Assembly (NCBI RefSeq): GCF_025420485.1
Contig: NZ_JAOEFD010000011.1
Coordinates: forward strand, 32,480 to 96,479
Source: Nesterenkonia marinintestina
Lineage (GTDB): Bacteria > Actinomycetota > Actinomycetes > Actinomycetales > Micrococcaceae
Direction of reading: 5' to 3'
DNA: 64,000 bases
Made by a program: the position numbers and the translations under genes. A model generated the notes under the pieces. That model did not search any database. It saw only the letters and a list, made by a program, of their open reading frames with translations, and was not told the origin of the DNA. Below, one piece after another: positions 1,755 to 24,452 of the stretch. The first letter of the stretch is position 1; each line of letters begins with the position of its first letter.

Positions 1755-1826
1755 ATCGAGTCCCCTGTTTCAGGCACAGTTTCGGGTGTTTTCGGCCCGA
1801 CACGCTGCAGGAATCTGGGACTCGAT
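1755..1826 (-). repeat. 72-bp palindromic intergenic element, copy 1
   Basis: Begins ATCGAG and ends CTCGAT, with internal arms forming an interrupted inverted repeat. Read on the minus strand it matches copy 5 (24381-24452) at 60 of 72 positions, most differences lying in the central loop. It sits 27 bp past the stop of the methyltransferase gene, in its direction of transcription. A G-rich tract follows it on the plus strand, equivalent to the C-rich tract preceding the other copies, which sets its orientation. Confidence 0.9.
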
Positions 1827-1853
1827 GGGAGGGGGGAGGGGAGGGTGGGGAGC

Positions 1854-2690
1854 TCAGGCCTCGTCGGGCAGGTGGCGGGCGACGAAGAACAGCCGACGGA
1901 ACGGCAGGATCGTGCCCAGCCGGTTCGGCGGATACGCCTCCGCCAGGGCGGCCTTGTACTCGGCGACGAACCGCTCACGCAGCGGATCCGGAAGCGCCTC
2001 CAGCACCGGACGGGCCGCGGTCGAGGAGATCCAGGTGAACACCGGGTCCTCGCCGGTGAGGATGTGGTGGTAGCGGGTCTCCCAGGCGTCCACCGTCCAC
2101 CCGTCCCGGGCGACGTCGAGCATGTAGTCCTGCAGCTGCGACGTGGGCTGCAGCAGCGAGTCCGGGTCGATGTGGTCGGAGTACGGCGCCGAGGTCGCGA
2201 ACTCCGCCAGCAGCCTGTGGCTCGGGGCGTCGAAGTTCCCCGGCACCTGCACCGCCAGCGCCCCGCCCGGGGCGACCTGATCCATGATCTGCGGCAGCAG
2301 CGCGCGGTGCTCGGGCAGCCACTGCAGCGCCGCATTCGAGACTACCAGATCCGCCGGTTCACCCAGCCGGAAGTCCCGGATGTCCGAGCGGAGATAGCTC
2401 ACCGACGCGTCGTCCGCAGTGGACTGGGCGGCACGCTCGAGCATCTCCGCGCTGGAGTCCACGCCCACGATCGAGGCCTCCGGCCACAGCGCGCGCAGCA
2501 CCGGCATCCCCGTGCCCGGTCCGCAGCCCAGGTCCACGATGCGCCGGGTCTCCGGCACGCCCGCGCGGTGGAGCAGGTCGATGAACGGCTGGAGGCGCTC
2601 ACCTGCGAACGTCAGGTATCGGGCGGGGTTCCAGTGGGTGCTGCCGACGCCGCGTGCCGAGGGGGCGGCGGGGTCCGAGGAGGCGGGCAT
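1854..2690 (-). CDS. tam: Trans-aconitate 2-methyltransferase-like SAM-dependent methyltransferase
   Basis: A class I SAM-dependent methyltransferase of 278 residues. It opens with THWNPARYLTFAGERLQPF, typical of the Tam family (W-x-P-x-x-Y-L-x-F-x-x-x-R), followed by the SAM-binding motif I VDLGCGPGTGMPVL and the acidic strand SIVGVDSS. Tam methylates trans-aconitate, a spontaneous by-product of the citric acid cycle that inhibits aconitase. The ATG at 2690 was preferred to a possible start 57 bases upstream because the N-terminal extension does not look like family sequence and a TACACT hexamer lies six bases ahead of this ATG, consistent with a leaderless transcript. It is monocistronic, diverges from aztD and is followed by repeat copy 1. 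Other SAM methyltransferases are close in sequence, so the substrate is inferred. Confidence 0.8.
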   Translation of the reverse strand: MPASSDPAAPSARGVGSTHWNPARYLTFAGERLQPFIDLLHRAGVPETRRIVDLGCGPGTGMPVLRALWPEASIVGVDSSAEMLERAAQSTADDASVSYLRSDIRDFRLGEPADLVVSNAALQWLPEHRALLPQIMDQVAPGGALAVQVPGNFDAPSHRLLAEFATSAPYSDHIDPDSLLQPTSQLQDYMLDVARDGWTVDAWETRYHHILTGEDPVFTWISSTAARPVLEALPDPLRERFVAEYKAALAEAYPPNRLGTILPFRRLFFVARHLPDEA

Positions 2691-2696
2691 GCTCTC

Positions 2697-2702
2697 AGTG
2701 TA
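2697..2702 (-). promoter_or_regulatory. -10 hexamer of tam, probable leaderless start
   Basis: On the minus strand TACACT is followed by six bases and the ATG of tam. No Shine-Dalgarno lies between, so transcription probably starts at or next to the initiation codon. No clear -35 element is visible. Confidence 0.45.
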
Positions 2703-2803
2703 TGGAGGCCGCGGCGTCCGGCGGCAGGGGCGGACGCAAATGGACACAGGCGCAGGTCGGGACGGTCCGGGAGACTGACCGTCGACACAGTGATGAGAAC
2801 GGT

Positions 2804-2832
2804 TTGCAATAAAGAGTGAGCGTGTTGATAAT
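2804..2832 (+). promoter_or_regulatory. Promoter of the aztD-like gene
   Basis: A -35 TTGCAA (2804-2809) and a -10 GATAAT (2827-2832) are separated by 17 bp, one of the best sigma-A-type promoters in the window. The expected start point, 6-8 bases past the -10, is the A of the ATG at 2840, and no ribosome binding site precedes that ATG. Confidence 0.7.
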
Positions 2833-2840
2833 CATTCTCA
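2826..2840 (+). promoter_or_regulatory. Probable Zur box
   Basis: TGATAATCATTCTCA fits the actinobacterial Zur consensus (TGAnAATnATTnTCA), a near-palindrome bound by the zinc-loaded repressor. It covers the -10 hexamer and ends on the A of the start codon, so occupancy would block transcription. A weaker match, TGAGAACGGTTTGCA at 2794-2808, overlaps the -35. Confidence 0.75.
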
Positions 2841-4234: not shown

Positions 4235-4243
4235 GGTCCGCGT

Positions 4244-5952: not shown

Positions 5953-6036
5953 AGGGGTCTCCTGTGACCTGTCGAAGGGGCGAGCGGTGATCCGAATCTA
6001 TCACCTCCCAGGGTTGCGGATGACGTCGATCACAGT

Positions 6037-6066
6037 TTCAATAGGTAGCAGTCATATTTTATTGAA
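6037..6066. promoter_or_regulatory. Candidate IclR operator and promoter region between hutG and hutU
   Basis: The inverted repeat TTCAATA (6037-6043) and TATTGAA (6060-6066), separated by 16 bp, lies in a strikingly AT-rich island 45 bp ahead of hutU. It contains -10-like CATATT/TATTTT sequences. It is the obvious operator for the locus regulator, although its long spacer is unusual for an IclR protein and the two arms may be parts of different sites. Confidence 0.5.
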
Positions 6067-6110
6067 TGGAAGACCGATCGCCTCGTAGAGGTCAAGAGAA
6101 GGGCGCCGTC

Positions 6111-7802: not shown

Positions 7803-7834
7803 CCGGCGCTGTCCCGGTTCCTGAAGGAGTCAAC

Positions 7835-9196: not shown

Positions 9197-9224
9197 CCAC
9201 CCGCCGCCGACGAGGGAGATCACC

Positions 9225-10571: not shown

Positions 10572-10602
10572 CCCGCACCCCGCCACCGAGGAGGACCCGA
10601 CC

Positions 10603-11793: not shown

Positions 11794-11812
11794 ACCGGTC
11801 TGGTCGACGGCT

Positions 11813-12727
11813 TCAGGTGACCTGCCTGGCGGCCCGGCGTCGCTGGTGACGCTGCGCGGCCGCTGAGGCCCACCAGGCCCCCAGGATGATGATCGCGCAG
11901 CCGATCAGCTGACCCGGAGTCGGGACGTCGCCGAGCAGCACCGCCGCCAGCGCCAGGGAGAACACCCCGGGCAGCAGGAGCAGCACGCTGGCCACCGTCT
12001 CCTGGACCCCGAGCATCCCGGTGTTGATGAACCAGTAGACGACCACCTGACCCAGGAACGCGAGCAGCAGCAGCCACCCCCAGTCCGCGGGTGTGGCGGG
12101 CAGACCCATCCCGCCGGAGACGAGCCCCGCGATCAGCGCGGCCGTGCCGGCGGAGAGCCCCACCAGGGCGAGGACCGTGAAGGGGGCGGGCTTCGTCGTC
12201 GCCGGTGCGGTGCGGCGGATGACCGCCAGATAGCAGGCGTAGCCGGTGCCGGCGATGAGGCCGAAGATGACCCCTCCGATGCGCAGCTCGCCGAGGTCCA
12301 GCGCCCCGGCGACCAGCACCAGACCCAGGAACATGACCGGGATGATCAGCCCCAGCACCGGCATCGGGCGGGTGCCCTCCATGGCCCAGGCGATCAGCGG
12401 CAGCACGATCAGCTGCACGTTCAGCAGCACGGTGGCGATGCCCGGGCCCACCTCGGCGATGGAGAAGTTCCAGAACACGTAGTCGGTGCCGAGGGCGAGC
12501 CCGGCGATCAGCGCGCCGATCACCGTGCGGCGGGGGAGGGCGCTGGAGCGGTCCACGCGGGAGAGCTCCCAGAGCACCATGGGCAGCATCATCGGCACCG
12601 CGAGCAGGCAGCGCAGCGCGGCGATGGCGATGAGGTCTGCGTCGATCACGGAGACCAGCAGCGCGGAGGCGCCCATCGCGGCGGTGCCGCAGATGAGCAT
12701 GAGCGTGCCGCGCAGGGGAGTGACCAT
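11813..12727 (-). CDS. EamA/DMT family transporter (first of two in the window)
   Basis: A 304-residue drug/metabolite transporter with two five-helix EamA repeats (about residues 1-145 and 150-290): MLICGTAAMGASALLVSVI at the start, YVFWNFSIAEVGPGIATVLL in the first repeat and the WWLLLLAFLGQVVVYWF-like segment in the second. Such proteins export amino acids or other small metabolites; substrate cannot be read from sequence. No Shine-Dalgarno is visible; TAGAAC ends seven bases before the ATG. It converges on hutI and its upstream region holds fragments of the 72-bp repeat family. Confidence 0.85.
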   Translation of the reverse strand: MVTPLRGTLMLICGTAAMGASALLVSVIDADLIAIAALRCLLAVPMMLPMVLWELSRVDRSSALPRRTVIGALIAGLALGTDYVFWNFSIAEVGPGIATVLLNVQLIVLPLIAWAMEGTRPMPVLGLIIPVMFLGLVLVAGALDLGELRIGGVIFGLIAGTGYACYLAVIRRTAPATTKPAPFTVLALVGLSAGTAALIAGLVSGGMGLPATPADWGWLLLLAFLGQVVVYWFINTGMLGVQETVASVLLLLPGVFSLALAAVLLGDVPTPGQLIGCAIIILGAWWASAAAQRHQRRRAARQVT

Positions 12728-12790
12728 CAGGCCAGTTCTAGCATGCGCCCGATCGAGACCCAGAAACGCCCCCGCCGAGCCTCAGCCGAA

Positions 12791-12807
12791 CCCCTCCATC
12801 GAGTCCC
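12791..12807 (+). repeat. Solo left end of the 72-bp repeat family
   Basis: CCCCTCCATCGAGTCCC occurs here and again 23 bp downstream at 12814-12830, where it forms the flank and left end of repeat copy 2. A further weaker left-end-like string, ATCGAGACCC, starts at 12752. These look like remnants of decayed or truncated copies. Confidence 0.65.
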
Positions 12808-12820
12808 ACCCCACCCCTCC

Positions 12821-12892
12821 ATCGAGTCCCCGATCTCTGCAGCACTTTGGGCCGATTCGAGCCCGACACGCTGCAGGGATCGGGGACTCGAT
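12821..12892 (+). repeat. 72-bp palindromic intergenic element, copy 2
   Basis: Begins ATCGAGTCCCCGATC and ends GATCGGGGACTCGAT, so its outer 15 bp are a perfect inverted repeat; the inner arms carry PstI-like CTGCAG blocks. It shares its last 22 bases with copies 3 and 4 but differs in the left inner arm. It lies 16 bp past the csoR stop codon in csoR's direction of transcription, preceded by a C-rich tract. Confidence 0.93.
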
Positions 12893-12908
12893 GCGGGTAG
12901 GGGGCCGC

Positions 12909-13259
12909 TCAGGACTTCACGAGCCGACGGATCGCCGCCGAGGCCTCCTGGAGCTTCGCCTCGGCGTCCTCGCCGCCGGACTCCATCGCATGGGCCACGC
13001 AGTGCCGCAGGTGGTCGTCGAGCAGGGCGAGCCCCACGTTCTCCAGCGCCGACTGCAGCGCACTGATCTGGGTGAGGATGTCGATGCAGTAGACGTCCTC
13101 GTCGACCATCCGATGGATGCCGCGGACCTGCCCCTCCACCCGCCGCAGCCGGGTGAGGTACTTCGACTTCTCGCTCATGTACCCGTGCCGGCCGTCCTCG
13201 CAGGCGCCGGCGGGGCCGTCGTCGTCGGCCTCGGATGCTGTGTGATGCTGCTCGCTCAT
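12909..13259 (-). CDS. csoR: Copper-sensing transcriptional repressor CsoR
   Basis: A 116-residue all-helical repressor of the CsoR/RcnR family. The Cu(I) triad C-H-C is present: Cys58 in EDVYCIDIL, His83 and Cys87 in DDHLRHCV, and the signature LRRVEGQVRGIHRMV precedes it. Cu(I) binding releases the protein from its GC-rich palindromic operator. It is divergent from copZ-copA, and the only good operator, a 17-bp palindrome, lies between them. The first 27 residues, hydrophilic with a Cys and several His, extend beyond the usual family start (MSEKSKYL); the upstream ATG was retained because it has a strong AGGAGGAGG site. Followed by repeat copy 2. Confidence 0.93.
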   Translation of the reverse strand: MSEQHHTASEADDDGPAGACEDGRHGYMSEKSKYLTRLRRVEGQVRGIHRMVDEDVYCIDILTQISALQSALENVGLALLDDHLRHCVAHAMESGGEDAEAKLQEASAAIRRLVKS

Positions 13260-13281
13260 GGGGCCTCCTCCTGGAGGAAAT

Positions 13282-13298
13282 ATACCCTATAGGGGTAT
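13282..13298. promoter_or_regulatory. CsoR operator
   Basis: ATACCCTATAGGGGTAT is a palindrome with 6-bp arms (ATACCC, GGGTAT) and matches the known CsoR box. It lies 23 bp from csoR and 50 bp from copZ, where it can control both. TATA-rich sequence within it could double as a -10 region. Confidence 0.85.
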
Positions 13299-13347
13299 GG
13301 TTGTGCCCAGTGGCAGCCCGGATCGAACGTCAGAAGAGGTGCATCCC

Positions 13348-13566
13348 ATGACCGAGACGCGAGAGTACAGCGTAGACGGTATGTCCTGCGCGCACTGCGA
13401 ATCCGCCGTCACCGAGGAGGTCTCCGCCCTGCCGGAGGTCGAGGGCATCGACGTCGACGTCGCCGCAGGAAGCCTGCGCGTGAGCGGGCCGGCCGAGCGG
13501 CTCGACGACGACGCCGTCGTCGCCGCCGTGGACGAAGCCGGCTACACCGCGGTGCGCGCGGCATGA
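13348..13566 (+). CDS. copZ: CopZ-like copper chaperone (heavy-metal-associated domain)
   Basis: A 72-residue single HMA domain with the Cu(I)-binding motif GMSCAHC (Cys14, Cys17) and a typical beta-alpha-beta-beta-alpha-beta pattern. It should carry Cu(I) to the ATPase encoded next. Start taken at the ATG preceded by AGAAGAGG; a longer frame upstream runs through the CsoR operator and is not credible. It overlaps copA by four bases (ATGA), so the two are translationally coupled and share CsoR control. Confidence 0.92.
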
Positions 13567-15893
13567 CCACCACCGGACAGCAGGTCCGCCTCGACATCGG
13601 AGGCATGACCTGCGCGGCCTGCGCCCAGCGGGTGGAGAAGAAGCTCAACCGGCTCGACGGCGTCGAGGCGACCGTCAACTACGCGACCGAGACCGCGCAG
13701 GTCACCGCCGCGGCCGACCGTGACCACGGGCAGCTCCTCGACGAACTCGTCTCCACGGTCGAGAAGACCGGATACACCGCGACAGAACCGGGGCGGTCCG
13801 TCGGTCCCGACGGCGACGGCGACAGTGCCGGTACCGCCGACGACGGAGACGAGCAGGCCGAGGAGCCCGACCGGGAGCTCGGTCTGCTGCGCACCCGTCT
13901 CATCGTCGCCTCGGTGCTCTCCGCCCCCGTGGTGCTCTGGGCCATGGTCCCGGCCACCCAGTTCGACTACTGGACCTGGGTCTCACTGGTGCTGACGGCC
14001 CCGGTGGTGCTCTGGGCGGGGCTGCCCTTCCACCGCGCGGCGCTGATCAACGCCCGCCACGGCGCGGCCACCATGGACACCCTCATCTCCGTGGGCACCC
14101 TGGCCGCCCTGTTCTGGTCCCTCTACGCCCTGCTCTTCGGCCACGCCGGGGACCCGCAGATGCGCCACGCCTTCACCCTGATCCCCGAACGCGGCGACGG
14201 CACCGGGGACGTGTACTTCGAGGTCGCCGCCGCAGTGACCGCGTTCCTGCTGCTGGGCCGGTACTTCGAACGCCGGTCCAAGCGACGGGCGGGTGCCGCA
14301 CTGCGCCGCCTGCTCACCATGGGCGCGAAGTCGGTCACCGTGCTGCGCGGCGGCTCCGGGGACGGCTCCGCAGGTACCGGGGAGGGATCCGAAGAGACCA
14401 CGGTGCCGATCGGCGAGCTCACCGTCGGCGACGAGTTCCTCGTCCGCCCGGGCGAGCAGATCGCCACCGACGGCGAGGTCGTCGCCGGAACCTCCGCGGT
14501 CGACGAATCCATGCTCACCGGCGAGTCCGTCCCCGTGGAGGTCGCCGTCGGAGACCGTGTCACCGGGGCGACGCTGAACACCTCCGGCCGGCTGGTCGTC
14601 CGTGCCGAGCGGATCGGCTCCGACACCCAGCTCGCCCAGATGGCGCAGCTGGTCGAGCAGGCCCAGTCCGGCAAGGCCGAGGTGCAGCGCCTCGCCGACC
14701 GGATCTCCTCGGTCTTCGTCCCCGTCGTCCTGGTCATCGCGATCGTCACCCTGATCGCCTGGCTGCTCACCGGCGCCTCGGCGGAGACCGCGTTCACCGC
14801 CGCCGTCGCCGTGCTCATCATCGCCTGCCCCTGCGCCCTCGGCCTCGCCACCCCGACCGCGCTGCTGGTCGGCACCGGACGCGGGGCCCAGCTGGGCATC
14901 CTCATCCGCGGCCCCGAGGTGCTGGAATCCTCGCGCGGGATCGACACCGTGCTGCTCGACAAGACCGGGACCCTGACCACCGGGGCCATGAAGGTCACCG
15001 CCGTCCACCCGTCCGCCGGCGCCGACGAGTCCGAGCTGCTGCGGCTGGCCGGCGCGCTCGAGGCCTCCTCCGAGCACCCGATCGCCCGTGCCGTGACCAG
15101 CTCGGCGCGGCAGACCCTGGGCTCGGCGCCCGGCACCCTGCCGGAGGTCACGGACTTCCGCGGGCTCTCCGGCCTCGGGGTGGAGGGCGTCGTCGAGGGC
15201 CGTGAGATGCTCATCGGCCGGCCGCACCTGCTCGAGGAGCGGGGGGTCGAGGTCCCGCTCGAGGCCCGCATGCTGGTCTCCCACGCTCAGGCCCAGGGCG
15301 CCACCCCGGTGCTCGCCGCCGCCGACGGAGCGTTCCTCGGGGTCGTCATCGTCGCCGACACCGTCAAGCGCCGCTCCGGATGGGCGGTTCGCTCGCTGCG
15401 CCGGCTCGGCCTCGAGACCCGCATGATCACCGGGGACAACGCCGGCGCCGCGGGGGAGGTCGCCCGAGCCCTGGACATCGACGAGGTCATCGCCGAGGTG
15501 CTGCCCGAGGACAAGGTCACCGAGGTCCGGCGGCTGCAGGACCAGGGCCGGCGGGTGGCGATGGTCGGCGACGGGATCAACGACGCCGCCGCCCTGGCCC
15601 AGGCCGACCTGGGGATCGCCATGGGCACCGGGGCAGACGTCGCCGTCGACGCCGCCGACATCACCATCATCCGGGGGGAGCCGCGCAGCATCGCCGACGC
15701 GATCCGGCTCTCCCGCAGCACGCTGCACGTGATCCGCACCAACCTGTTCTGGGCGTTCCTGTACAACGTGGCGGCGATCCCGCTTGCCGCGTTCGGGCTG
15801 CTCAACCCGATGCTCGCCGGCGCCGCGATGGTGCTCTCCTCGCTCTCGGTGGTCCTCAACAGCCTGAGGCTGCGCCGCTTCCGCGGCTCCTGA
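13563..15893 (+). CDS. copA: P1B-type Cu(I)-exporting ATPase (CopA)
   Basis: A 776-residue heavy-metal ATPase. An N-terminal HMA domain carries MTCAAC (Cys17, Cys20); an acidic linker of about 30 residues leads to the membrane domain. The transmembrane metal site CPCALG is at residues 422-424, the phosphorylation motif DKTGTLT starts at Asp466, the nucleotide-binding SEHPIARA and the hinge [10 protein letters not shown] are intact. CPC with downstream N and M-S-type residues ([24 protein letters not shown]) indicates group 1B-1 Cu(I) specificity. It exports copper from the cytosol. A run of Gly/Ser/Glu in the actuator region (about residues 262-278) is an insertion compared with shorter homologues. 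It ends 14 bp before repeat copy 3. Confidence 0.95.
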
Positions 15894-15907
15894 CCCCTCC
15901 CCCCTCC

Positions 15908-15979
15908 ATCGAGACCCCGATCTCAGCGGCGTGTCGGGCCGAAATCGGCCTCAGATGCTGCAGGGATCGGGGACTCGAC
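15908..15979 (+). repeat. 72-bp palindromic intergenic element, copy 3
   Basis: Sits between the convergent copA and fic genes, 15 bp past one stop and 24 bp from the other. It is a direct repeat of copy 4 on the far side of fic (69 of 72 bases identical). The left outer arm reads ATCGAGACCCCGATC, the right GATCGGGGACTCGAC. In RNA from either strand it would form a long hairpin, so it could terminate both genes. Confidence 0.93.
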
Positions 15980-16002
15980 GGGGACGGTGAAGCTGTCAGT
16001 CC

Positions 16003-17289
16003 TCAGGGACGCTGCGGGACGGGGCGGTTCGGCGAAGACGCCCGAGTGTCGAAGCGCGTGCTGGCCAGACGGCGCTCGGTCAGGGTCACCAGATCCAGCA
16101 CATCGGGGCACAGGTAGGCACGGAGGCCGCGCCCGATGGAGACGGTCGTGAGGACGTCCGCTCCGTGCAGCGACTCCAGTGCCTTGGACGCGGCGTTCAT
16201 CGACACGCCATGTATGCGCCGGACACTCGTGGGCGTCAGGACGGGAGTGCCGGGCAAGCCGTCGACGATGGCACGGACTGCCGAGTCTCTGCGGAGCGCA
16301 CGCCGGAGGCCGGTCGTATCTCGGTGACGTTCGATCCTGGCGAGCCAGTCCTGGTGCAGCTCGTCGACGTCGTCGACCAGGTCGGACGCCTGGGCCGCCG
16401 CGTCGGCGACGGCGCCGGCGAACACCGCGATCCACGTTTCGCGCGCACGGTGAGCCGACTCGGAGTCCGGTGCGTCGTCATGCCGGAACGCAGTGAGGCC
16501 GCCGATGTAGTGGTCGTCGAACGTCGCAAGCACCAGGCTCACCGGCAGGATGGAGGCCTGGGTCAGTCCGCGGCGGGTGAGCACAGTGTGGATCAGCGCG
16601 CGGCCCACTCGGCCGTTGCCGTCGGCGAAAGGATGGATCGTCTCGAACTGGGCGTGGACCAGGGCCGCTTGGACGATCGGAGAGTGGGCAGCCCCGTTCA
16701 TGTATCGGACGAGGTCCTCCATCGCTGCGGGCACTCCCTGGGGAGCAGGCGGAACGAACTCGGCGTCGAGCGGATGGTAGGCGGACCCACCGACCCAGTT
16801 CTGCGTCCGACGCAGACCGTGGAGCCGGGGAGCATCGGTGAGCAGTGAGCGCTGCAGATCGACGAGCTGATCGACCGTGACCTGCTCTGCAGAGGCGATC
16901 GCAGCCGATGCCTCAGTCACGACGGTCATGTTCTGTGCGACCAGCCGAGCCGCCTGGTTCACCCCCGCGACGGATTCGTGCTGACCGAGTTCGGCCAAGG
17001 CCGCCTGTTTGGGGCTGGGCGAGATGCCTTCGATCCTCGATGAGGCGATCGCCTCGGACCTGAGAAGGAGTCGGGCCAGCGGGATCAGCCCAGCGAAGCT
17101 CCTGCGGTCGAGGTCCCGAACCGACTGTTCGGCTCGCGCCACCGCTGCGTCGACCTCAGTTCCCAGACGGAGCGCCGAACCCGTCAGGGGGTCCGGCCGG
17201 TAGGAGGCATAGGGGCCTGACCTCCGGGCGCTCCGCGGCAGCCCAGATCCTTCTACGGGGTTCCAGTGATGCTCATCCCACCCGGCCAT
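16003..17289 (-). CDS. Fic family protein with N-terminal inhibitory motif and C-terminal winged helix
   Basis: A 428-residue Fic protein. The catalytic motif HPFADGNGRVGR (His219-Arg230) is complete, so AMP or another nucleotide moiety could be transferred to a target hydroxyl. An inhibitory motif of the (S/T)xxxE(G/N) type, SSRIEG (Ser83-Gly88), precedes the Fic core, as in class II Fic proteins whose own helix blocks ATP. The last 90 residues look like a winged helix (VLTPTSVRRIHGVSMNAASKALESLHGADVL), pointing to DNA binding and autoregulation. It stands alone, flanked by near-identical 72-bp repeats, with no antitoxin gene next to it, and its codon use appears less GC-extreme than its neighbours, which may indicate acquisition. 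Confidence 0.9.
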   Translation of the reverse strand: MAGWDEHHWNPVEGSGLPRSARRSGPYASYRPDPLTGSALRLGTEVDAAVARAEQSVRDLDRRSFAGLIPLARLLLRSEAIASSRIEGISPSPKQAALAELGQHESVAGVNQAARLVAQNMTVVTEASAAIASAEQVTVDQLVDLQRSLLTDAPRLHGLRRTQNWVGGSAYHPLDAEFVPPAPQGVPAAMEDLVRYMNGAAHSPIVQAALVHAQFETIHPFADGNGRVGRALIHTVLTRRGLTQASILPVSLVLATFDDHYIGGLTAFRHDDAPDSESAHRARETWIAVFAGAVADAAAQASDLVDDVDELHQDWLARIERHRDTTGLRRALRRDSAVRAIVDGLPGTPVLTPTSVRRIHGVSMNAASKALESLHGADVLTTVSIGRGLRAYLCPDVLDLVTLTERRLASTRFDTRASSPNRPVPQRP

Positions 17290-17328
17290 GGCTAGTCTCC
17301 AAAGGTGTCCTTCACGGGCTTCACTTAC

Positions 17329-17345
17329 ACTTTAACCCCTAAAGT
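17329..17345. promoter_or_regulatory. Palindrome upstream of fic, candidate autoregulatory operator
   Basis: ACTTTA and TAAAGT are separated by five bases, 40 bp ahead of the fic start, in an AT-rich patch. The Fic protein has a C-terminal winged helix, so autoregulation is plausible. TTGAAC on the minus strand next to it could be a -35 element. Confidence 0.4.
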
Positions 17346-17390
17346 TCAACGCCGACCTCGGGAGCGGACGGACAACGGCTACCCCGCCCC

Positions 17391-17462
17391 ATCGAGACCC
17401 CGATCTCAGCGGCGTGTCGGGCCGAAATTGACCTCAGATGCTGCAGGGATCGGGGACTCGAT
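17391..17462 (+). repeat. 72-bp palindromic intergenic element, copy 4
   Basis: Direct repeat of copy 3, differing at three positions. It lies in the divergent region between fic and the YeeE gene, so unlike the other copies it does not follow a stop codon. Flanked on the left by CCCCGCCCC and on the right by GGGG. Confidence 0.93.
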
Positions 17463-17551
17463 GGGGCCGGGTGGCGCAACGCGGGTTAACGCGCCGTAGC
17501 AAACCGTCAAGTTCCTTGGTGATGACCCTCGACCAGGTGTCCGATGGGCAC

Positions 17552-18613
17552 ATGATCATCACCGGACTCCTCCTCGGCGCAGTGCTCGGATTCGTCTTCC
17601 AGCGCGGCCGCTTCTGCGTCACCGGCGCCTTCCGTGACCTGTTCACGATCAGGAGCACGCGCTGGTTCACCGCGTTCATGGTGATCGTCGCCGTCCAGTC
17701 GATCGGCGTCTTCGCCCTCGACGCGCTCGGGGTCATCAACCTCGAGGGCGGCACCTTCCCGTGGCTGGGCACCATCCTCGGCGGGTTCATCTTCGGCTTC
17801 GCGATCATCCTCGCCGGCGGATGCGCCACCGGCACCTACTACCGCGCAGGGGAGGGGCTGGTCGGCTCCTGGTTCGCGCTCATCTGCTACATCGCCGGTG
17901 CCGCCGCGTTCCGCTTCGGTCCGCTGGCCGGCACCACCGACGCTGTCCGCTCCGTCGAGATGCAGGACGGCAACCTGCAGGAGGCGCTCGGCGTCACCCC
18001 GTGGATCCTGGTCATCCTGCTGGTCGCCGGAGTCGGCGTCGCCGTGCTGCGCCAGCTGAACCGGGAGCGTCAGATGCACAAGGTGCAGCTGCCCGCACTG
18101 AAGAGCGGGATCTCGCACGTACTGACCGAGAAGGCCTGGCACCCGTTCGTCACCGCCGCGATCATCGGCATCATCGCCATCGCCGCCTGGCCGCTGTCCT
18201 GGGCCACCGGTCGCGAGGCCGGACTGGGCATCACCGGCCCGTCCGCGCAGATCGGCGTGTTCCTCGGCACCGGGGACATGGAGCTCGTCGACTGGGGCAT
18301 GATGCTCGTCCTCGGCCTGCTCATCGGCTCCTTCATCGCCGCCAAGGCCTCCGGCGAGTTCAAGATCCGCGTCCCCGACGCCCAGACCACCGTCCGCTCG
18401 ATCATCGGCGGCCTCGGCATGGGCTGGGGCGCGGCCTGGGCCGGCGGATGCACCATCGGCAACGCCATGGTCAACACGGCCACCTTCAGCTTCCAGGGCT
18501 GGACCGCGCTGCTGTTCATGGTCCTGGGCACCGGCGTCGCCGCGAAGATCTTCATCATGGGCGGCGGACGGAAGGGTGCGACGGCGACGCCGAAGCTCAC
18601 CACGGTCTCCTGA
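17552..18613 (+). CDS. YeeE/YedE family sulfur (thiosulfate) transporter
   Basis: A 353-residue membrane protein of the YeeE/YedE family, which moves thiosulfate or a related sulfur species inward. The N-terminus MIITGLLLGAVLGF followed by QRGRFCVTGAFRD and later GGCATGTYYRAGEG and AGGCTIGNAMVNT are the three Cys-containing motifs thought to relay the substrate. The start at 17552 matches family N-termini; an in-frame ATG ten codons upstream is possible, and any start before 17463 would place repeat copy 4 inside the protein. A tusA gene follows, the usual partner. A hairpin GGCGC...GCGCC near 17472-17494 lies in its leader. Confidence 0.88.
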   Translation: MIITGLLLGAVLGFVFQRGRFCVTGAFRDLFTIRSTRWFTAFMVIVAVQSIGVFALDALGVINLEGGTFPWLGTILGGFIFGFAIILAGGCATGTYYRAGEGLVGSWFALICYIAGAAAFRFGPLAGTTDAVRSVEMQDGNLQEALGVTPWILVILLVAGVGVAVLRQLNRERQMHKVQLPALKSGISHVLTEKAWHPFVTAAIIGIIAIAAWPLSWATGREAGLGITGPSAQIGVFLGTGDMELVDWGMMLVLGLLIGSFIAAKASGEFKIRVPDAQTTVRSIIGGLGMGWGAAWAGGCTIGNAMVNTATFSFQGWTALLFMVLGTGVAAKIFIMGGGRKGATATPKLTTVS

Positions 18614-18622
18614 CCCAGCCCT

Positions 18623-18669
18623 GACCGCCCCGAAAGCACAGATCGCACAGACCGCCCCGAAAGCACAGA
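18623..18669 (+). repeat. 27-bp-period tandem duplication between the YeeE gene and tusA
   Basis: A 20-bp string (GACCGCCCCGAAAGCACAGA) occurs at 18623-18642 and again at 18650-18669, joined by seven bases. It lies in the 100-bp gap between the two genes and looks like a simple replication slippage product; no function is evident. Confidence 0.85.
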
Positions 18670-18713
18670 CCACAGACACCATCAGACCGTCACACGACGG
18701 AGAGGAGAACGAC

Positions 18714-18941
18714 ATGACGCAGCACGTGCTCGAGACCGACGGACAGGTCTGCCCCTTCCCGCTGGTGGAGGCGAGGCAGGCGATGGAGCAGATCGCATCC
18801 GGCGACGAGCTCATCATCAACTTCGACTGCACCCAGGGCACCGACTCCATCCCGCAGTGGGCCGCGGAGAACGGCTACCCGGTGACCGACTTCTCCAAGC
18901 GCGGCGCCGCCGAGTGGAGCATCACGGTCAGGAAGTCCTGA
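18714..18941 (+). CDS. tusA: TusA family sulfurtransferase
   Basis: A 75-residue protein with the TusA fold signature: VCPFPLVEAR contains the CPxP motif (Cys13, Pro14, Pro16) and the conserved Arg21. The Cys carries a persulfide; in YeeE-linked TusA proteins it receives sulfur from the membrane transporter and passes it on for assimilation. AGAGGAGA lies a few bases ahead of the ATG, which was preferred to longer frames. Followed immediately by a strong terminator, so yeeE-tusA is a two-gene unit. Confidence 0.93.
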   Translation: MTQHVLETDGQVCPFPLVEARQAMEQIASGDELIINFDCTQGTDSIPQWAAENGYPVTDFSKRGAAEWSITVRKS

Positions 18942-18965
18942 CCGGCCCGACCGGCCCACCCGCAG

Positions 18966-19003
18966 CGGACCCCCTGCTCCTCGCCCGAGGAGCAGGGGGT
19001 CCG
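18966..19003 (+). terminator. Hairpin terminator after tusA
   Basis: An 18-base perfect inverted repeat (CGGACCCCCTGCTCC arms) with almost no loop, starting 24 bp past the stop and followed by TTCGTCTT. It lacks a long T-run, as is common in actinobacteria. Confidence 0.85.
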
Positions 19004-19037
19004 TTCGTCTTCCGTCACATCTCGTTCTCGGAACAGG

Positions 19038-19056
19038 TTTGGTAAGGCTATACTCA
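19038..19056 (+). promoter_or_regulatory. Candidate DtxR/IdeR box over the siderophore operon promoter
   Basis: TTTGGTAAGGCTATACTCA matches 14 of 19 positions of the IdeR/DtxR consensus (TTAGGTTAGSCTAACCTAA). It covers a -10 TATACT (19049-19054) that ends four bases before the first permease ATG, so iron-loaded repressor would shut the operon. No Shine-Dalgarno lies between. Confidence 0.65.
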
Positions 19057-19058
19057 CC

Positions 19059-20234
19059 ATGTTCCGAAAGTCGGATGTGATGCACCGCCCCGCCGCGACC
19101 TCAGCGACGACGACGGCAGCCGCCGACCCCGCCGCAGCACCGAGGACGCCCGTGACCACTCTGACGCCGGAGGCCGCCGCACCGTCGGCCGACCCCGCGG
19201 ATCCCCAGCGCGCAGCCTCGCCCCGACGCCGCGCCGGCGTCGTGCTCCTCGCCCTCGGCATCCTGGTCGTGCTGGCCTGGGCCAGCCTGTTCGTCGGCTC
19301 CGGGGACATCACCGCCGCCCGCACGTGGGAGATCCTCGGCGCCTGGATCCGCGGCGAGCTGCCCGCCGGTGACCGCGACACCGCCGTACTGATCATCCTC
19401 GAACGGCGCCTGCCCCGCACGGTGCTGGCCGTGCTCGTCGGCGCGGCCCTGGGCCTCTCCGGCACGCTCATGCAGGCGCTGACCAGGAACCCGCTGGCCG
19501 ACCCGGGCCTGCTCGGCGTCAACGCCGGGGCCTACACCGCAGTGGTCATCGGCTCGGCGACCATGGGAATCACCGTCGGCACCGGCCACGTGTGGCTCGC
19601 CCTGGGCGGCGCGCTGGTCACCGCCGTCGTCGTCTACGGGGTCGGCACCTCCGGACGACTCGGCGGCTCGCCGGCCAAGCTCGTGCTCACCGGGGTGGCC
19701 GTCGGCGCGGTGCTCAGCGGACTCAGCTTCGCGATCACCCTGGCCATGCCCGAGGTCTTCGACAAGGTGCGCTTCTGGTCGGCCGGCTCCCTGCAGGGCC
19801 GCACCTTCGACGAGATCACCGCCGTGCTCCCGTTCCTCGCAGCCGGCACCGCCCTGGCCCTGCTGCTGCCCCCGGCGCTGAACGCCCTGGCCCTCGGCGA
19901 CGACGCCGCCGTCGCCCTCGGCTCCCGGCCCGCCCTGACCCGCATCCTCGGGCTGGCCGCCATCACCCTGCTCTGCGGTGCGGCCACCGCCGCGGCGGGA
20001 CCGCTGTCGTTCATCGGGCTCATCGTCCCCCACGCGCTGCGGATGATCCTCGGCCCCGACCACCGGTGGCTGGTGCCGATGAGCCTGCTGGCCGCGCCGA
20101 TCCTCATGCTCGCCGCCGACGAGCTCGCCCGCCTCGTGGTCGCCGCCGAACTGCCCACCGGGGTCGTCACCGCGTTCCTCGGAGCCCCGGTGCTCATCGC
20201 GCTGACCCGCCGGAAGGGGGTGCGTGAGCTGTGA
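19059..20234 (+). CDS. Iron-siderophore ABC transporter permease (FecCD family), first subunit
   Basis: A 391-residue permease of the FecCD/BtuC family, with about nine to ten membrane helices after a 55-residue Ala/Pro/Thr-rich cytosolic N-terminus. Signatures are ERRLPRTVLAVLVGAALGLSG, QALTRNPLADPGLLG and the ATPase-contact and late segment GPLSFIGLIVPHALRMILG. It pairs with the second permease to form the channel for ferric siderophore uptake. The ATG at 19059 is immediately downstream of the -10, implying a leaderless mRNA; the next ATG, at 19080, would also serve. Overlaps the next gene by four bases (GTGA). Confidence 0.92.
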   Translation: MFRKSDVMHRPAATSATTTAAADPAAAPRTPVTTLTPEAAAPSADPADPQRAASPRRRAGVVLLALGILVVLAWASLFVGSGDITAARTWEILGAWIRGELPAGDRDTAVLIILERRLPRTVLAVLVGAALGLSGTLMQALTRNPLADPGLLGVNAGAYTAVVIGSATMGITVGTGHVWLALGGALVTAVVVYGVGTSGRLGGSPAKLVLTGVAVGAVLSGLSFAITLAMPEVFDKVRFWSAGSLQGRTFDEITAVLPFLAAGTALALLLPPALNALALGDDAAVALGSRPALTRILGLAAITLLCGAATAAAGPLSFIGLIVPHALRMILGPDHRWLVPMSLLAAPILMLAADELARLVVAAELPTGVVTAFLGAPVLIALTRRKGVREL

Positions 20235-21364
20235 CGACGACGCTCCACAGCCGCGCACGGACTGAGGCCCGCCCCGAGGCCCGCCCTGAGACCCGTGCTG
20301 AGACCCGCGGAGACACGGGGAACACCGGCGACGGCGCCCGCACCCGCCTCACCGCCCGGCGACGCGACCTCCGGACCCCGATCGTCACCCTCGTCCTCAC
20401 GATCACCGCCCTGGCCCTGGCCTGGTGGGGGCTGAACTCCGGCACCTCACAGATGACCACCGCCGACACCCTCGACGCGCTGCTCGGCCGCGCCGACGAG
20501 GGCACCGCCCGCGTCATCCTCGACTGGCGGCTGCCGCGCGTGGTGTTCACCCTCCTGGGCGGGGCCGCGCTGGCGATGGCCGGAGCCGTGTTCCAGTCCA
20601 TGACCCGCAACCCCCTGGGCAGCCCCGACGTCATCGGCTTCTCCACCGGCGCCTACACCGGGGCGCTGGTCGTCGCCGTCGCCGGAACCGCCGGCGCCCT
20701 GGCCACCCCGCTGGGAGCGGTCGCCGGGGGACTGGGCACCGGTGCGGCGGTGTACCTGCTGGCCCGACGGCGCGGACTCAACGGGGGAGGGCTCTCCGGG
20801 ATGCGGATCATCGTCGTCGGCATCGGGGTGAGCATCCTGCTCGGCTCGGTGAACACCTACCTGATCACCACCATGGACCTCGAGGCCGCGATGTCCGTGG
20901 CCACCTGGGGCGCGGGCAGCGTCAACGACATCACCTGGACCCACGTCGTCCCCCTGACCCTGGCGCTGGCCGTGCTCGGCCCTGTCATGCTCGCCCACGC
21001 CCGCGAGATGACCCTGATGGAGATGGGCGACGACGCCGCCCACGGGCTCGGCGTCAGGTTGGAACGGGTGCGCCTGGTGATGTTCGCCGCCGGGATCCTG
21101 CTGGTCGCCGTGGTCACCGCCGCGGCCGGCCCCATCGCGTTCGTCGCCCTGGTCGCCCCTCAGCTGGCCCTGCGCCTGACCCGCTCCGGCTCGGTGGGCC
21201 TGCTGCCCGCCGCCGCCATGGGCGCGGCGCTGCTCACCGGCGCCGACCTGCTCGCACGCTGGGAGGCGGTGCCCGCCGACCTGCCCGTCGGCGTGGTCAC
21301 CCTGTGCCTCGGCGGGGCCTACCTGGTGTGGCTGCTGACCACCATGGGACGGAGGACGGCATGA
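20231..21364 (+). CDS. Iron-siderophore ABC transporter permease (FecCD family), second subunit
   Basis: A 377-residue FecCD permease starting with GTG inside the stop of the first permease gene. The N-terminal 45 residues are hydrophilic with an irregular repeat of ARPE/ARPET/AETRG units; these may be expendable. Core motifs: DWRLPRVVFTLLGGAALAMAG, QSMTRNPLGSPDVIGF and GPIAFVALVAPQLALRLTRSG. Together with the first subunit it forms the heterodimeric membrane domain, as in FepDG. Coupled by ATGA overlap to the ATPase gene. Confidence 0.92.
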   Translation: MTTTLHSRARTEARPEARPETRAETRGDTGNTGDGARTRLTARRRDLRTPIVTLVLTITALALAWWGLNSGTSQMTTADTLDALLGRADEGTARVILDWRLPRVVFTLLGGAALAMAGAVFQSMTRNPLGSPDVIGFSTGAYTGALVVAVAGTAGALATPLGAVAGGLGTGAAVYLLARRRGLNGGGLSGMRIIVVGIGVSILLGSVNTYLITTMDLEAAMSVATWGAGSVNDITWTHVVPLTLALAVLGPVMLAHAREMTLMEMGDDAAHGLGVRLERVRLVMFAAGILLVAVVTAAAGPIAFVALVAPQLALRLTRSGSVGLLPAAAMGAALLTGADLLARWEAVPADLPVGVVTLCLGGAYLVWLLTTMGRRTA

Positions 21365-22194
21365 GCAGCATGAGCACGATGGACGACGCCCGACGCACTC
21401 CGACCGCGTCGCGCCTGCGCACCGAATCCCTGCACGCCGGCTACGAGGGCCGCCCCGTGCTCGCCGACCTCAGCATCGAGATCCCCGACGGCTCCTTCAC
21501 CGTGATCCTCGGCCCCAACGCCTGCGGCAAGTCCACCCTGCTGCGCAGTCTGGTCCGCCTCATCCGCCCCACCGACGGTTCCGTGCTGCTCGACGGCGCC
21601 TCCGTCGCCTCGATCCCCACCAAGCAGCTCGCCCGGACCGTGGGCCTGCTGCCGCAGTCCTCCCAGGCGCCCGAGGGCATCACCGTGGCCGACCTCGTCT
21701 CCCGCGGGCGCCACCCGCACCAGTCCCTGCTGCGCCGGTGGAGCACCGACGACGAGGACGCCGTCGCCCGGGCCCTGGCTGACACCGGAATGACCGACCT
21801 GGCCTCCCGGTCGGTGGACGAACTCTCCGGCGGGCAGCGCCAGCGGGCCTGGATCGCCATGGCCCTGGCCCAGCAGACCCCGCTGCTGCTGCTCGACGAG
21901 CCCACCACGTTCCTCGACATCGCCCACCAGCTCGAGGTGCTGCAGCTGTGCACCCGACTGCGACGCAGCGGCCGCACGCTCGTCGCCGTGCTCCACGACC
22001 TCAACCAGGCGCTGCGCTACGCCACCCACATCGTCGCCATGCGCGACGGGGAGATCCTCGCCCAGGGGACCCCCGAAGAGGTGGGCACCGCCGAGCTCGT
22101 CGAACGGGTCTACGGGGTGGCCGCGCGGATCATCGACGACCCCGAGACCGGCCGACCGCTGGTCATCCCCAAAGCACCGGACCCCGGCACCTGA
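21361..22194 (+). CDS. Iron-siderophore ABC transporter ATP-binding protein
   Basis: A 277-residue ABC ATPase of the FepC/FhuC group. Walker A GPNACGKST is at residues 51-59, signature LSGGQRQR near 155, Walker B LLLLDEP and the switch His in VAVLHDLNQAL follow. It powers the FecCD permease pair encoded upstream. The ATG overlaps the stop of the second permease (ATGA); a longer open frame upstream is a shadow. The usual FepC-like length (about 260) is met. Confidence 0.93.
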   Translation: MSSMSTMDDARRTPTASRLRTESLHAGYEGRPVLADLSIEIPDGSFTVILGPNACGKSTLLRSLVRLIRPTDGSVLLDGASVASIPTKQLARTVGLLPQSSQAPEGITVADLVSRGRHPHQSLLRRWSTDDEDAVARALADTGMTDLASRSVDELSGGQRQRAWIAMALAQQTPLLLLDEPTTFLDIAHQLEVLQLCTRLRRSGRTLVAVLHDLNQALRYATHIVAMRDGEILAQGTPEEVGTAELVERVYGVAARIIDDPETGRPLVIPKAPDPGT

Positions 22195-22284
22195 CCCCGG
22201 CTGATCCAGGCCGATCCCGAACTGCCCCGGCGCGACCGGGTTCCACCCGACCCCCAGATGTCCCCCAGACAAGGAGAACCCCAT

Positions 22285-23307
22285 ATGCCCACCACCCGCA
22301 CCGCACTCACCGCCTCGCTGGCCGCCCTGGCCCTCGGACTCACCGCCTGCGGCGGAGGCGGAGGCGACGATGACAGCGGCGGCGACGGCGGCTCCGGGGG
22401 CGAGGCCGTCACCGTCGAGCACAACCTCGGCACCACGGAGATCCCCGCCCCGGAGGACGGCGAGCTCGACATCGTCGCCCTGGGCTGGTCGGACGCCGAA
22501 GTCGCTCTGGCGCTGGGCCACGAACCCGTCGCGGTGATGGACTGGCTGGGCTTCGGGGAGGAGACCCACGGCGTCGGCCCCTGGGCCGCGGACGAGGTCG
22601 AGGGCGAGCCCGCCGTGATCGAGCGCGCCGACGGCGAACTCGACTACGAAGAGATCCAGGCACTCGACCCGGACCTGATCCTCAACGTCAACTCCGACTA
22701 CGACGAGGCCACCTACGAGCGGCTCTCCGAGATCGCCCCCACCGTGGCGGGCCCCGAGGGCGCGGCGAACTTCAACCCCGGCTGGCAGAACCAGACCGAG
22801 CTGATCGCTCAGGCCCTGGGTGAGGAGGAGGCCGGTGAGGAGCTGATCTCCGACACCGAGTCGCGCATCGAGGAGGTCGCCTCCGAGCACCCGGACTTCG
22901 AGGGCGTCGAGGCGGTCACCGGCTCCAAGTTCGGCGAGGCCTACGGGCTCTCCGCCGCCGGCGACCTGCGCTGGGACATCATGCAGGACCTGGGCTTCAC
23001 CATGTACGGCCCGGCCGCCGAGATCGCCCCGGAGGACGACTTCTATGCCGACGTCTCCCAGGAGCAGGTGGACGTGTTCGACGCCGACGTCGCCGTGCTC
23101 TTCCCCATCGGCTACACCCTGGAGGACCTGGAGGACGACGACCTGCTGAGCTCCCTCGACGTCGTATCCGAGGACCGCGCGGTGCTGCTGGACCCGGACG
23201 AGGAGCTGGTCCAGGCGTTCTCGGCCGGCAGCCCGCTGTCCATCGAGGTGGTGCTCGACGAGCTCCCCGACCGTCTGCAGGAGGCCGTCGACCGTGGACA
23301 GGAGTGA
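22285..23307 (+). CDS. Iron-siderophore ABC transporter substrate-binding lipoprotein
   Basis: A 340-residue periplasmic-binding-type lipoprotein of the FepB/FhuD cluster. A short signal peptide ends in the lipobox GLTAC (Cys22), followed by a Gly/Asp linker and the two-lobe binding fold, for example DIVALGWSDAEVALALGHEPVAV and EEIQALDPDLILNVNSDYD. It is very acidic. The ATG used has AGGAGAA ahead of it; another ATG nine codons upstream adds nothing family-like. It lies 90 bp past the ATPase gene and should present ferric siderophore to the permease. No siderophore biosynthesis genes are in the window, so the ligand may be a xenosiderophore. Confidence 0.92.
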   Translation: MPTTRTALTASLAALALGLTACGGGGGDDDSGGDGGSGGEAVTVEHNLGTTEIPAPEDGELDIVALGWSDAEVALALGHEPVAVMDWLGFGEETHGVGPWAADEVEGEPAVIERADGELDYEEIQALDPDLILNVNSDYDEATYERLSEIAPTVAGPEGAANFNPGWQNQTELIAQALGEEEAGEELISDTESRIEEVASEHPDFEGVEAVTGSKFGEAYGLSAAGDLRWDIMQDLGFTMYGPAAEIAPEDDFYADVSQEQVDVFDADVAVLFPIGYTLEDLEDDDLLSSLDVVSEDRAVLLDPDEELVQAFSAGSPLSIEVVLDELPDRLQEAVDRGQE

Positions 23308-23331
23308 GACGCAGGAAGGACGTGATCATCT

Positions 23332-24357
23332 GTGAGGGCATTCGACGTCCGAGTGAGCCGCATCCGCCGGCTCAGCCCGCACTTCGTGCGGTTCACCTTC
23401 GGCGGGGAGTCCCTGCGGCGGTTCGCGCCCACCGGACTGGACCAGCGCATCAAGCTGATCTTCCCGCTGGCCGACGGCAGCTTCACCGACCTCGGGCTCT
23501 TCGACGAGCCGGCACCGGCGATGATGACCTGGTACGCCGCGTGGCGGGCCCTGCCAGACGAGGAGCGCAACCCGATCCGCACCTACACGGTCCGACACAT
23601 CCGGCGTGAGCACGGGCAGATCGACGTCGACTTCGTCCTCCACACCGACGACCATGGCGACGACGACGGCGCCGACGGCCCGGCCGCATCCTGGGCGGCC
23701 CGGGCGACGGTCGGCGACCGGCTCATCGTCATCGGCCCCGCCCTGGCGGACGACGCGGTGATCGACGCCCGGGGCTGCACGGTGGCCGACTCGACGGCGA
23801 CCGAGCCGGGCAGCGGCGTGGAGTGGTACCCCGGAGCGGCGCGGCGGCTGCTGATCGTCGCCGATGAGACGGCGGTCCCGGCGGCGGCCTCGGTGCTGGA
23901 GTCGCTGGGACCCGAGTACACCGGGGAGGCGTTCCTCGAGGTCCCGACCGCCGGCGACGTGCTCGACGTGCGCACCGACTCCCAGGTGCAGATCCGGTGG
24001 CTGCCCCGCGAGGGCGGGACCTGGGGCGCGGAGCTGGATCCGGCCGTGCGCGACTGGGGACGCCGACGGGTCCGCACGCTCGTGGGCGCCGGTGTCGGCA
24101 CCGCCGATGGTCCGCAGACCTCCGAGCAGGAGCTGCCCGAGCTCCCGGAGTTCGAGGGCCAGCCGCTGCTGTGGGAGGTCTCCGAACCCGGGGACCAGGA
24201 CCACGGGACATCCTCCGAGGACGACCACTACGCCTGGCTGGCCGGAGAGGCCGGGGCGATCACCGCGCTGCGCCGCCACCTGGTGAAGGACCTGGGGATC
24301 AGCCGGAGACGCGTCTCGTTCATGGGGTACTGGCGCCGCGGCCGCCCCAGCGCCTGA
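23332..24357 (+). CDS. Siderophore-interacting protein (ViuB-type ferric reductase)
   Basis: A 341-residue flavoprotein of the SIP family, which reduces ferric siderophores in the cytosol to release iron. The FAD-binding signature RTYT (Arg83-Thr86) lies in a typical context (NPIRTYTVRHI), and the C-terminal NAD(P)H domain contains ADETAVPAAASVLESL and the closing segment VKDLGISRRRVSFMGYWRRG. GTG start with AGGAAGGA upstream. As the last gene of the siderophore uptake operon it fits the import-then-reduce scheme. Followed 24 bp later by repeat copy 5. Confidence 0.92.
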   Translation: MRAFDVRVSRIRRLSPHFVRFTFGGESLRRFAPTGLDQRIKLIFPLADGSFTDLGLFDEPAPAMMTWYAAWRALPDEERNPIRTYTVRHIRREHGQIDVDFVLHTDDHGDDDGADGPAASWAARATVGDRLIVIGPALADDAVIDARGCTVADSTATEPGSGVEWYPGAARRLLIVADETAVPAAASVLESLGPEYTGEAFLEVPTAGDVLDVRTDSQVQIRWLPREGGTWGAELDPAVRDWGRRRVRTLVGAGVGTADGPQTSEQELPELPEFEGQPLLWEVSEPGDQDHGTSSEDDHYAWLAGEAGAITALRRHLVKDLGISRRRVSFMGYWRRGRPSA

Positions 24358-24380
24358 CCCCACCCCGCCCCCACCCCTCC

Positions 24381-24452
24381 ATCGAGTCCCCGATCCCTGC
24401 AGCGTGTCGGGGCAATTTCGGCCCGAACTGTGCCAGAAACAGGGGACTCGAT
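24381..24452 (+). repeat. 72-bp palindromic intergenic element, copy 5
   Basis: Begins ATCGAGTCCCCGATCCC and ends AGGGGACTCGAT. The left arm matches the common arm type, whereas the right arm has the divergent AGAAACAGGGG type shared only with copy 1 (in inverse orientation). A C-rich tract precedes it. It lies between the siderophore-interacting protein gene and rlmN. Confidence 0.93.

What the first reader, a model, noticed from the sequence alone, without database searches (positions are those of the whole stretch)
1755..24452. Family of five 72-bp inverted-repeat elements
Five intergenic sequences at 1755-1826, 12821-12892, 15908-15979, 17391-17462 and 24381-24452 are each exactly 72 bp from ATCGAG to CTCGAT/CTCGAC. 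Each is an imperfect palindrome with conserved outer 10-15 bp and a variable core, with a C-rich tract on the left and a G-rich one on the right (copy 1 is inverted). Two arm types combine: the CTGCAGGGATCGGGG type and the AGAAACAGGGG type. Constant length with mosaic arms is unlike simple decay. I do not recognise a described family; REP/BIME-like or MITE-like elements mobilised in trans are the closest concept.
Basis: partly seen in the sequence, partly recalled or inferred. Interest (0 to 1): 0.85.

Follow-up and report, generated by a model that had tools for sequence, protein, structure and literature searches.

The report
Palindromes spread by a DNA-cutting enzyme
In a bacterium that is likely a Brachybacterium, 72-letter DNA palindromes scattered behind genes match the palindromes on both sides of a gene for a predicted DNA-cutting enzyme, which likely uses them as landing sites to spread itself and other genes; the same layout, with other palindromes, recurs around related enzyme genes in further bacterial families.

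Summary
In detail: five exact 72-bp imperfect palindromes. The genome holds 27, every one 72 bp. Related palindromes with species-specific arms occur across the genus, mostly within 36 bp behind stop codons. Two copies, often in direct orientation, bracket one- or two-gene cassettes; one orthologous junction shows zero, one, two or three copies in different relatives. One cassette carries a gene for an AbiEi-like DNA-binding part fused to a nuclease domain whose best structural match is the EDxHD homing endonuclease I-Bth0305I. Searched from the protein side, homologues of this gene have matching repeats on both flanks in 31 of 49 genus loci (27 of the repeats palindromic) and 32 of 40 loci from the wider order (16 palindromic, in nine families), against about 1% of unrelated flank pairs. 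A second nuclease in the same genome has its own, different palindrome with seven more copies elsewhere. A Y1/RAYT transposase is absent. I propose a REPIN/RAYT-like arrangement run by an unrelated enzyme: the palindrome is the nuclease's long dimeric target, and repair of cuts copies palindromes and whatever lies between two of them. Association and architecture are shown; cutting and movement are inferred. My literature searches found no description.

The parts
1755..1826 (-). 72-bp palindrome, copy 1 (minus by arm type)
12821..12892 (-). 72-bp palindrome, copy 2 (minus by arm type)
15908..15979 (+). 72-bp palindrome, copy 3; left border of the Fic cassette
17391..17462 (+). 72-bp palindrome, copy 4; right border of the Fic cassette; 96% identical to copy 3 in direct orientation, flanks not similar over 60 bp
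24381..24452 (+). 72-bp palindrome, copy 5
16003..17289 (-). Fic/DOC-family gene (428 aa) bracketed by copies 3 and 4 as a one-gene cassette

Best explanation
The window's 72-bp palindromes are dispersed copies of the palindromes that flank a gene for a predicted AbiEi-like/EDxHD (Vsr-fold) nuclease elsewhere in the same genome, and they are likely that nuclease's target sites, through which it would spread itself, its palindromes and neighbouring genes. Shown: the nuclease gene (G000 C3:13137-14177, about 18 kb before the window starts) sits between two copies; 27 copies exist, all 72 bp; homologous nuclease genes in the genus and the order carry their own matching flank repeats in most loci tested; a second nuclease in this genome has its own second palindrome family; copies bracket variable gene cassettes. 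Inferred: a nuclease dimer binds the two arms of a palindrome and cuts it; repair of the break from another palindrome homogenises the copies within a species and shuffles arms; repair from a palindrome-gene-palindrome template copies in the nuclease or any other bracketed gene. How a copy reaches a fresh site is not explained.
Against: No cutting or movement was seen. 18 of 49 genus loci and 8 of 40 order loci show no matching pair above threshold, and in 16 of the 32 order loci that do, the repeat is not palindromic by my test. 6 of 85 and 2 of 23 control genes also pass the threshold. Foldseek gives no significant whole-model match (best E 0.013). Some cassette losses did not go through the palindromes: degraded nuclease remnants in G019 and G022. 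At one insertion the duplicated unit includes about 43 bp beyond the palindrome. G009's element by dnaK scores only 31 against the best of three nuclease loci of G009 tested, with unrelated loci at 20-25. Copies are clustered by region, which the model does not predict. Direction (gain or loss of cassettes) is mostly unresolved.
Confidence: 0.5

Rival explanations
1. The palindromes are MITE-like ends moved by some other, classical transposase, and the nuclease gene is only one frequent passenger, like composite structures bounded by two miniature elements.
For: Two copies bracket many unrelated genes (Fic, diaminopropionate lyase plus M20 peptidase, glyoxalase, OmdA, QuiC-like, gltS, S9 peptidase). 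Composite structures bounded by two MITEs are known (PMC13367494, start of abstract in listing).
Against: Nuclease genes of this family carry a pair of flank repeats in most loci tested, in many families, with different sequences; a passenger should not be so constant. No target-site duplication was evident in the flanks read. I made no search for classical transposases in G000.
Confidence: 0.2
2. The palindromes are selected transcription terminators or 3'-end hairpins that happen to be alike.
For: 72 of the 83 elements with a facing gene 3' end lie at most 36 bp behind it; 44 of 94 lie between convergent genes. Stems are strong.
Against: Runs of four or more T beside the element on only 2 of 180 sides; no copy-level pairing beyond shuffled arms; exact length and sequence shared within species; pairs around nuclease genes not explained.
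Confidence: 0.1
3. The palindromes are operators: an AbiEi-like protein represses its own gene through the upstream palindrome, and the other copies are regulon sites.
For: N-terminal part matches AbiEi. That AbiEi antitoxins bind inverted repeats in their own promoter is recalled, not taken from a call.
Against: Elements sit behind 3' ends; only 11 of 94 lie in divergent (promoter) gaps; it does not explain the second, downstream palindrome or the cassettes.
Confidence: 0.1
4. The palindromes are attC-like sites of a site-specific recombinase that inserts gene cassettes.
For: Cassette arrays: 16 direct, 5 inverted and 1 tied among 22 consecutive pairs under 5 kb (counted; test); zero-, one-, two- and three-element states at one junction.
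Against: The constant partner found is a nuclease; several losses did not go through the elements. No recombinase family was searched for, so this stays open.
Confidence: 0.08
5. REPIN/RAYT system with a Y1 transposase.
For: Same layout: enzyme gene beside its own palindromes, dispersed copies (PMC3116915, passages).
Against: Y1_Tnp absent from this genome and from 29 of 30 genus genomes; the same search rings in 5 of 14 control genomes, E. coli among them.
Confidence: 0.02

Closest known systems
REPIN/RAYT systems (REP-associated tyrosine transposases)
   Same: An enzyme gene beside its own palindromes, many dispersed non-autonomous palindromes, class-specific sequences, extragenic, more than one class per genome (PMC3116915 passages).
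   Different: Enzyme is a predicted AbiEi-EDxHD/Vsr-type nuclease, not a Y1 transposase; unit is one 72-bp palindrome of near-constant length; copies bracket gene cassettes.
EDxHD homing endonucleases (I-Bth0305I)
   Different: N-terminal part is AbiEi-like; gene is free-standing between palindromes in a chromosome; targets would be many dispersed sites.
AbiE type IV toxin-antitoxin antitoxin AbiEi
   Same: N-terminal DNA-binding part.
   Different: Extra C-terminal nuclease domain; the G000 cassette holds one called gene, so no toxin partner lies within it.
MITE-bounded composite elements (TIME-COMPs)
   Same: Two short inverted-repeat elements bracket passenger genes (PMC13367494, start of abstract in listing).
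   Different: Derived from Tn3 transposons there; here the ends match those of a nuclease gene.

Membership tests
REPIN/RAYT | Y1 (HUH) transposase gene associated with the repeats | tested here: not met
   PF01797: none in G000, 1 of 30 genus genomes
REPIN/RAYT | enzyme gene flanked by its own palindromes plus dispersed copies | tested here: met
   Met in layout only, with a different enzyme
EDxHD homing endonuclease | EDxHD/Vsr-type nuclease fold | tested here: met
EDxHD homing endonuclease | conserved E, D, H, D catalytic residues | tested here: inconclusive
   E244 nearly invariant, D277 and D303 invariant in 35 homologues; an H near position 294 in most, by my reading of the alignment; equivalence to the I-Bth0305I active site is my inference
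EDxHD homing endonuclease | cuts a long specific site and homes by repair | not testable with these tools
   needs biochemistry
PF18741 MTES_1575 / PF04480 DUF559 | profile match over the curated cut-off | tested here: not met
   Gene A: no Pfam match at E 0.001; eight homologues match PF18741 or DUF559 only below the cut-offs; more distant database relatives carry these domains
AbiEi antitoxin | AbiEi profile and fold | tested here: met
Intrinsic terminator | hairpin followed by a T run | tested here: not met
   2 of 180 sides; none called at window 12000-25000
Integron attC | IntI-type tyrosine recombinase | not tested
   no search made for it
Known Rfam RNA | match at gathering score | tested here: not met
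   0 matches in the window

The most novel reading that the evidence does not exclude
A new kind of bacterial selfish system, palindrome homing: AbiEi-EDxHD nucleases, each paired with its own palindrome, cut dispersed copies of it, and repair copies palindromes, the nuclease gene and any gene lying between two palindromes, building integron-like cassette arrays without a transposase or integrase. It would account for many orphan DUF559/AbiEi-type genes of actinobacteria.
Probability: 0.4. Interest if true: 0.95.

Novelty: categorically new. Interest (0 to 1): 0.85.

Why it matters
REPIN/RAYT is the best-known case of an enzyme keeping a population of short palindromes in a bacterial genome. 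This would be a second, unrelated invention of that arrangement, driven by a homing-type nuclease, present in several families of one order, and coupled to the gain and loss of ordinary genes. It gives orphan AbiEi/DUF559-like genes a testable role, offers nuclease-site pairs that can be read directly from sequence, and could explain cassette-like gene turnover.

Tried and rejected
RAYT/Y1 enzyme: rejected. Known RNA family: none. Intrinsic terminator as the main function: disfavoured. Presence in viruses: exact pattern, 0 in viral contigs. Exact pattern in GTDB genome contigs: two stretches, of which L031 (KLAP8) is a chance match and L032 a real one. A strict palindrome scan lost many flank palindromes and was replaced by local alignment of the two flanks. 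My first two controls for that were spoilt by near-identical or duplicate loci (99th percentile 760, 277, where no locus passed); one search uses unrelated flanks instead (threshold 37, maximum 38). The 600 mismatched pairs also give 37 as 99th percentile, with one extreme value of 696. I dropped L196 (a fragment) and L201 (same locus as L197), and tested 49 of the more numerous hits. A nucleotide-exact empty site without any element was not obtained; the ALDH-dnaK gaps differ too much. Arms as independent haplotypes: left-right distance correlation 0.25 (p 0.025), 0.10 (p 0.18) without near-identical pairs, so mosaicism is supported but weakly measured. Not in print: my ten searches cover only an open-licence library.
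Full report
WHAT IS THERE. The five sequences are as described: 72 bp each, imperfect palindromes. The window lies in an unnamed 2.58-Mb genome, G000, at C3:32480-96479. Two proteins of G000 are 96-97% identical, and a third 98%, to those on a contig titled Brachybacterium sp. MAG S5R_Sa_40 (L032), so the host is likely a Brachybacterium. A pattern that allowed spacers of 42-66 finds 22 copies, all with a 52-base spacer, and one unrelated 67-bp match. A covariance model built from 22 G000 and 2 L032 copies raises this to 27 in G000, all matched over the full 72 positions; best-strand scores end at 58.5 bits and the next match has 26.7. So truncated copies were not seen in G000 at this sensitivity; a weak 70-bp match of the second model in G000 (C8:19071, 25.9 bits) is a palindrome with other arms. 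Short forms do exist in relatives: a 58-bp element in G021 and a 38-bp palindrome in G003.

A GENUS-WIDE FAMILY. The same model finds elements in relatives whose arm sequences differ by species. An alignment of 33 elements (A4) shows the recurring frame RTYGAG-N5-GAT, and in 18 of 19 stem pairs some sequences are changed on both sides with pairing kept. A second model hits 19 of 149 genomes of the family at E 0.005, some weakly; G000, G011, G019, G021 and G022 have 31-33 strand-matches each, and only 33 candidates per genome were scored, so these are lower bounds. Of 90 elements collected from 9 genomes, 83 are 72 bp, 5 are 71, 1 is 73 and 1 is 58.

WHERE THEY SIT. With my own simple gene caller, 94 elements have a called gene on both sides (orthologous copies in different species counted separately; 3 fall inside a called gene): 44 between convergent genes, 39 tandem, 11 divergent. 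Of the 83 with a gene 3' end facing them, 72 lie at most 36 bp behind it (a few overlap it) and 75 at most 77 bp. A T run is almost never present (2 of 180 sides).

ARMS. Within G000, shuffling right arms among the 27 copies leaves stem pairing unchanged (0.883 v 0.879, p 0.37); G029 (0.852 v 0.871) and G011 (0.854 v 0.851) agree, while G021 is 0.889 v 0.870, p 0.07. Arm identity within a copy is 0.712 against 0.725 between copies of the same genome. Each arm thus follows the species consensus on its own, as two half-sites of a protein dimer would, and not as one selected hairpin.

CASSETTES. Elements less than 5 kb apart are more alike than distant ones (0.823, n 26, v 0.738, n 679; p 2e-6). 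Of 22 consecutive pairs, 16 are direct, 5 inverted and 1 tied (counted; p 0.027 without the tie). Four near-identical pairs in G000 are 96-97% identical over the 72 bp; over 60 bp outside it identity is 0.28-0.45, though one pair keeps 10 of 10 bases on one side. In the window, copies 3 and 4 are such a pair and bracket a Fic gene. At the ALDH-dnaK junction, G021, G004 and G014 have no model-recognised element and the two genes adjoin; G003 and G009 have one element; the sister contig L032 has two, with one gene between; G000 has three, with one gene and then two genes between. Other relatives (G025, G008, G027, G024, G002, G020) show no model-recognised element in this gap but other genes or a longer gap, and G029's contig ended short of it. 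Further junctions show one element against element-genes-element among closely related species, including G022's two-gene cassette and the nuclease cassette of G011 and G021. G011 and G016 align over most of 200 kb, mostly at 88-95% identity: a 2.35-kb G011 segment ends in two elements where G016 has one, the duplicated unit including about 43 bp of an adjoining hairpin. Some losses did not use the elements: G019 and G022 keep remnants of the nuclease gene beside a single element.

THE NUCLEASE. The gene between the first two elements at the G000 junction (C3:13137-14177) has no Pfam or NCBIfam match. Among all called genes of the loci then held, five members of its family (itself included) were found: four lay between two elements and the fifth, a remnant, beside one; those loci were chosen around elements, so this is biased. 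A search from the protein side is not: 28 of 30 genus genomes have homologues. Of 30 loci returned, 7 (G000, G011, G012, G016, G018, G021, G028) are flanked on both sides by well-scoring model elements, and others by one or by weak matches; one G029 copy is flanked as well. Others carry palindrome pairs of quite different sequence, for example in G002, G003, G008, G009, G020 and G025. Scoring the two flanks of each gene against each other, 31 of 49 genus loci exceed the 99th percentile of 500 unrelated flank pairs (37) and 27 exceed the best of 85 control genes (42; 6 of the 85 exceed 37); 27 of the 31 repeats are themselves palindromic (p at most 0.01 against shuffled letters). Several of these loci come from sister species and are not independent. 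For 40 loci taken down the PF18741 list (single genes of about 300-470 codons; a few on short contigs skipped), 32 exceed 37 and 29 exceed 42, against 2 of 23 control genes there; 16 of the 32 repeats, from nine families, are palindromic by the same test and 16 are not, some of them being longer or tandem repeats. Repeat similarity follows protein similarity only between close homologues (Mantel rho 0.16, p 0.001, 31 loci).

SOLO COPIES OF OTHER NUCLEASES. A second G000 nuclease (C37:69265-69954) is flanked by its own palindrome of about 74 bp (C37:68849, C37:70028); that palindrome has seven more places in the genome (75-92% identity) and a partial one at C3:96412, the end of the window. In G199, from another family, the flank palindrome has one further good copy and two weak partial ones. 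G003's element at dnaK matches the palindrome of one of its own nucleases (score 60, against 21 for the other one tested); G009's does not clearly match any of three tested (22, 23, 31; unrelated loci 20-25).

INTERPRETATION. Shown: nuclease gene plus its palindrome pair, dispersed copies, fixed length, species-specific sequence, cassette bracketing, absence of Y1. Inferred: the palindrome is the nuclease target; breaks are repaired from other copies, which homogenises them and mixes arms; a palindrome-gene-palindrome template copies in the gene between. Not explained: how a palindrome reaches a site that had none, and why copies cluster (8 of 27 on the 96-kb contig C3, none on the 512-kb C1). 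Not tested: other transposases and site-specific recombinases.

LITERATURE. REPIN/RAYT work (PMC3116915, passages) is the nearest in layout. The MTES_1575 Vsr-type domain is mentioned in PMC3710099 (passages) in the context of large fusion proteins. In a 2025 survey of REP sequences (PMC12306157), a term search of the main text finds neither nuclease nor RAYT. None of my ten searches found the nuclease-palindrome association.

Noticed in passing
window 63933-64000: A partial match to the second, unrelated palindrome family (that of the nuclease at G000 C37:69265) begins at the very end of the window, which is the contig end.
   Followed up: partly
G000 contigs C1 and C3: Elements are regionally clustered: 8 of 27 on the 96-kb C3 (P 4e-6), none on the 512-kb C1 (P 0.003).
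   Followed up: partly
window 16003-17289: A Fic/DOC gene bracketed by two near-identical elements; among the other genus genomes only G007 and G026 have the neighbouring sulphur-transport gene at E 1e-60, and in G007 my gene calls next to it show no Fic homologue.
   Followed up: partly
L108:4795-13688 (G021): A segment of nearly 9 kb with eight called genes lies between two elements; in G016 the corresponding pair encloses only the last gene, and in G011 about 0.4 kb with no called gene.
   Followed up: partly
L251 and L265 (G209): Tandem-looking or long repeats flank two nuclease genes of another genus, instead of a simple palindrome pair.
   Followed up: no
L032 (JAUNUA010000147.1): The only well-scoring element copies found in that 2.6-Mb MAG are on this one 6-kb contig, so the contig may be misbinned or the repeats lost in assembly.
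   Followed up: no
L299-L300 (G011 C4:182560-185290): The element lies behind what looks like a tRNA 3' end and a hairpin, and the hairpin is duplicated together with the element around a 2.35-kb insert in which no gene was called.
   Followed up: no
L035:11072-11141 (G000 C8:19071): A further 70-bp palindrome with unrelated arms, possibly of yet another family.
   Followed up: no
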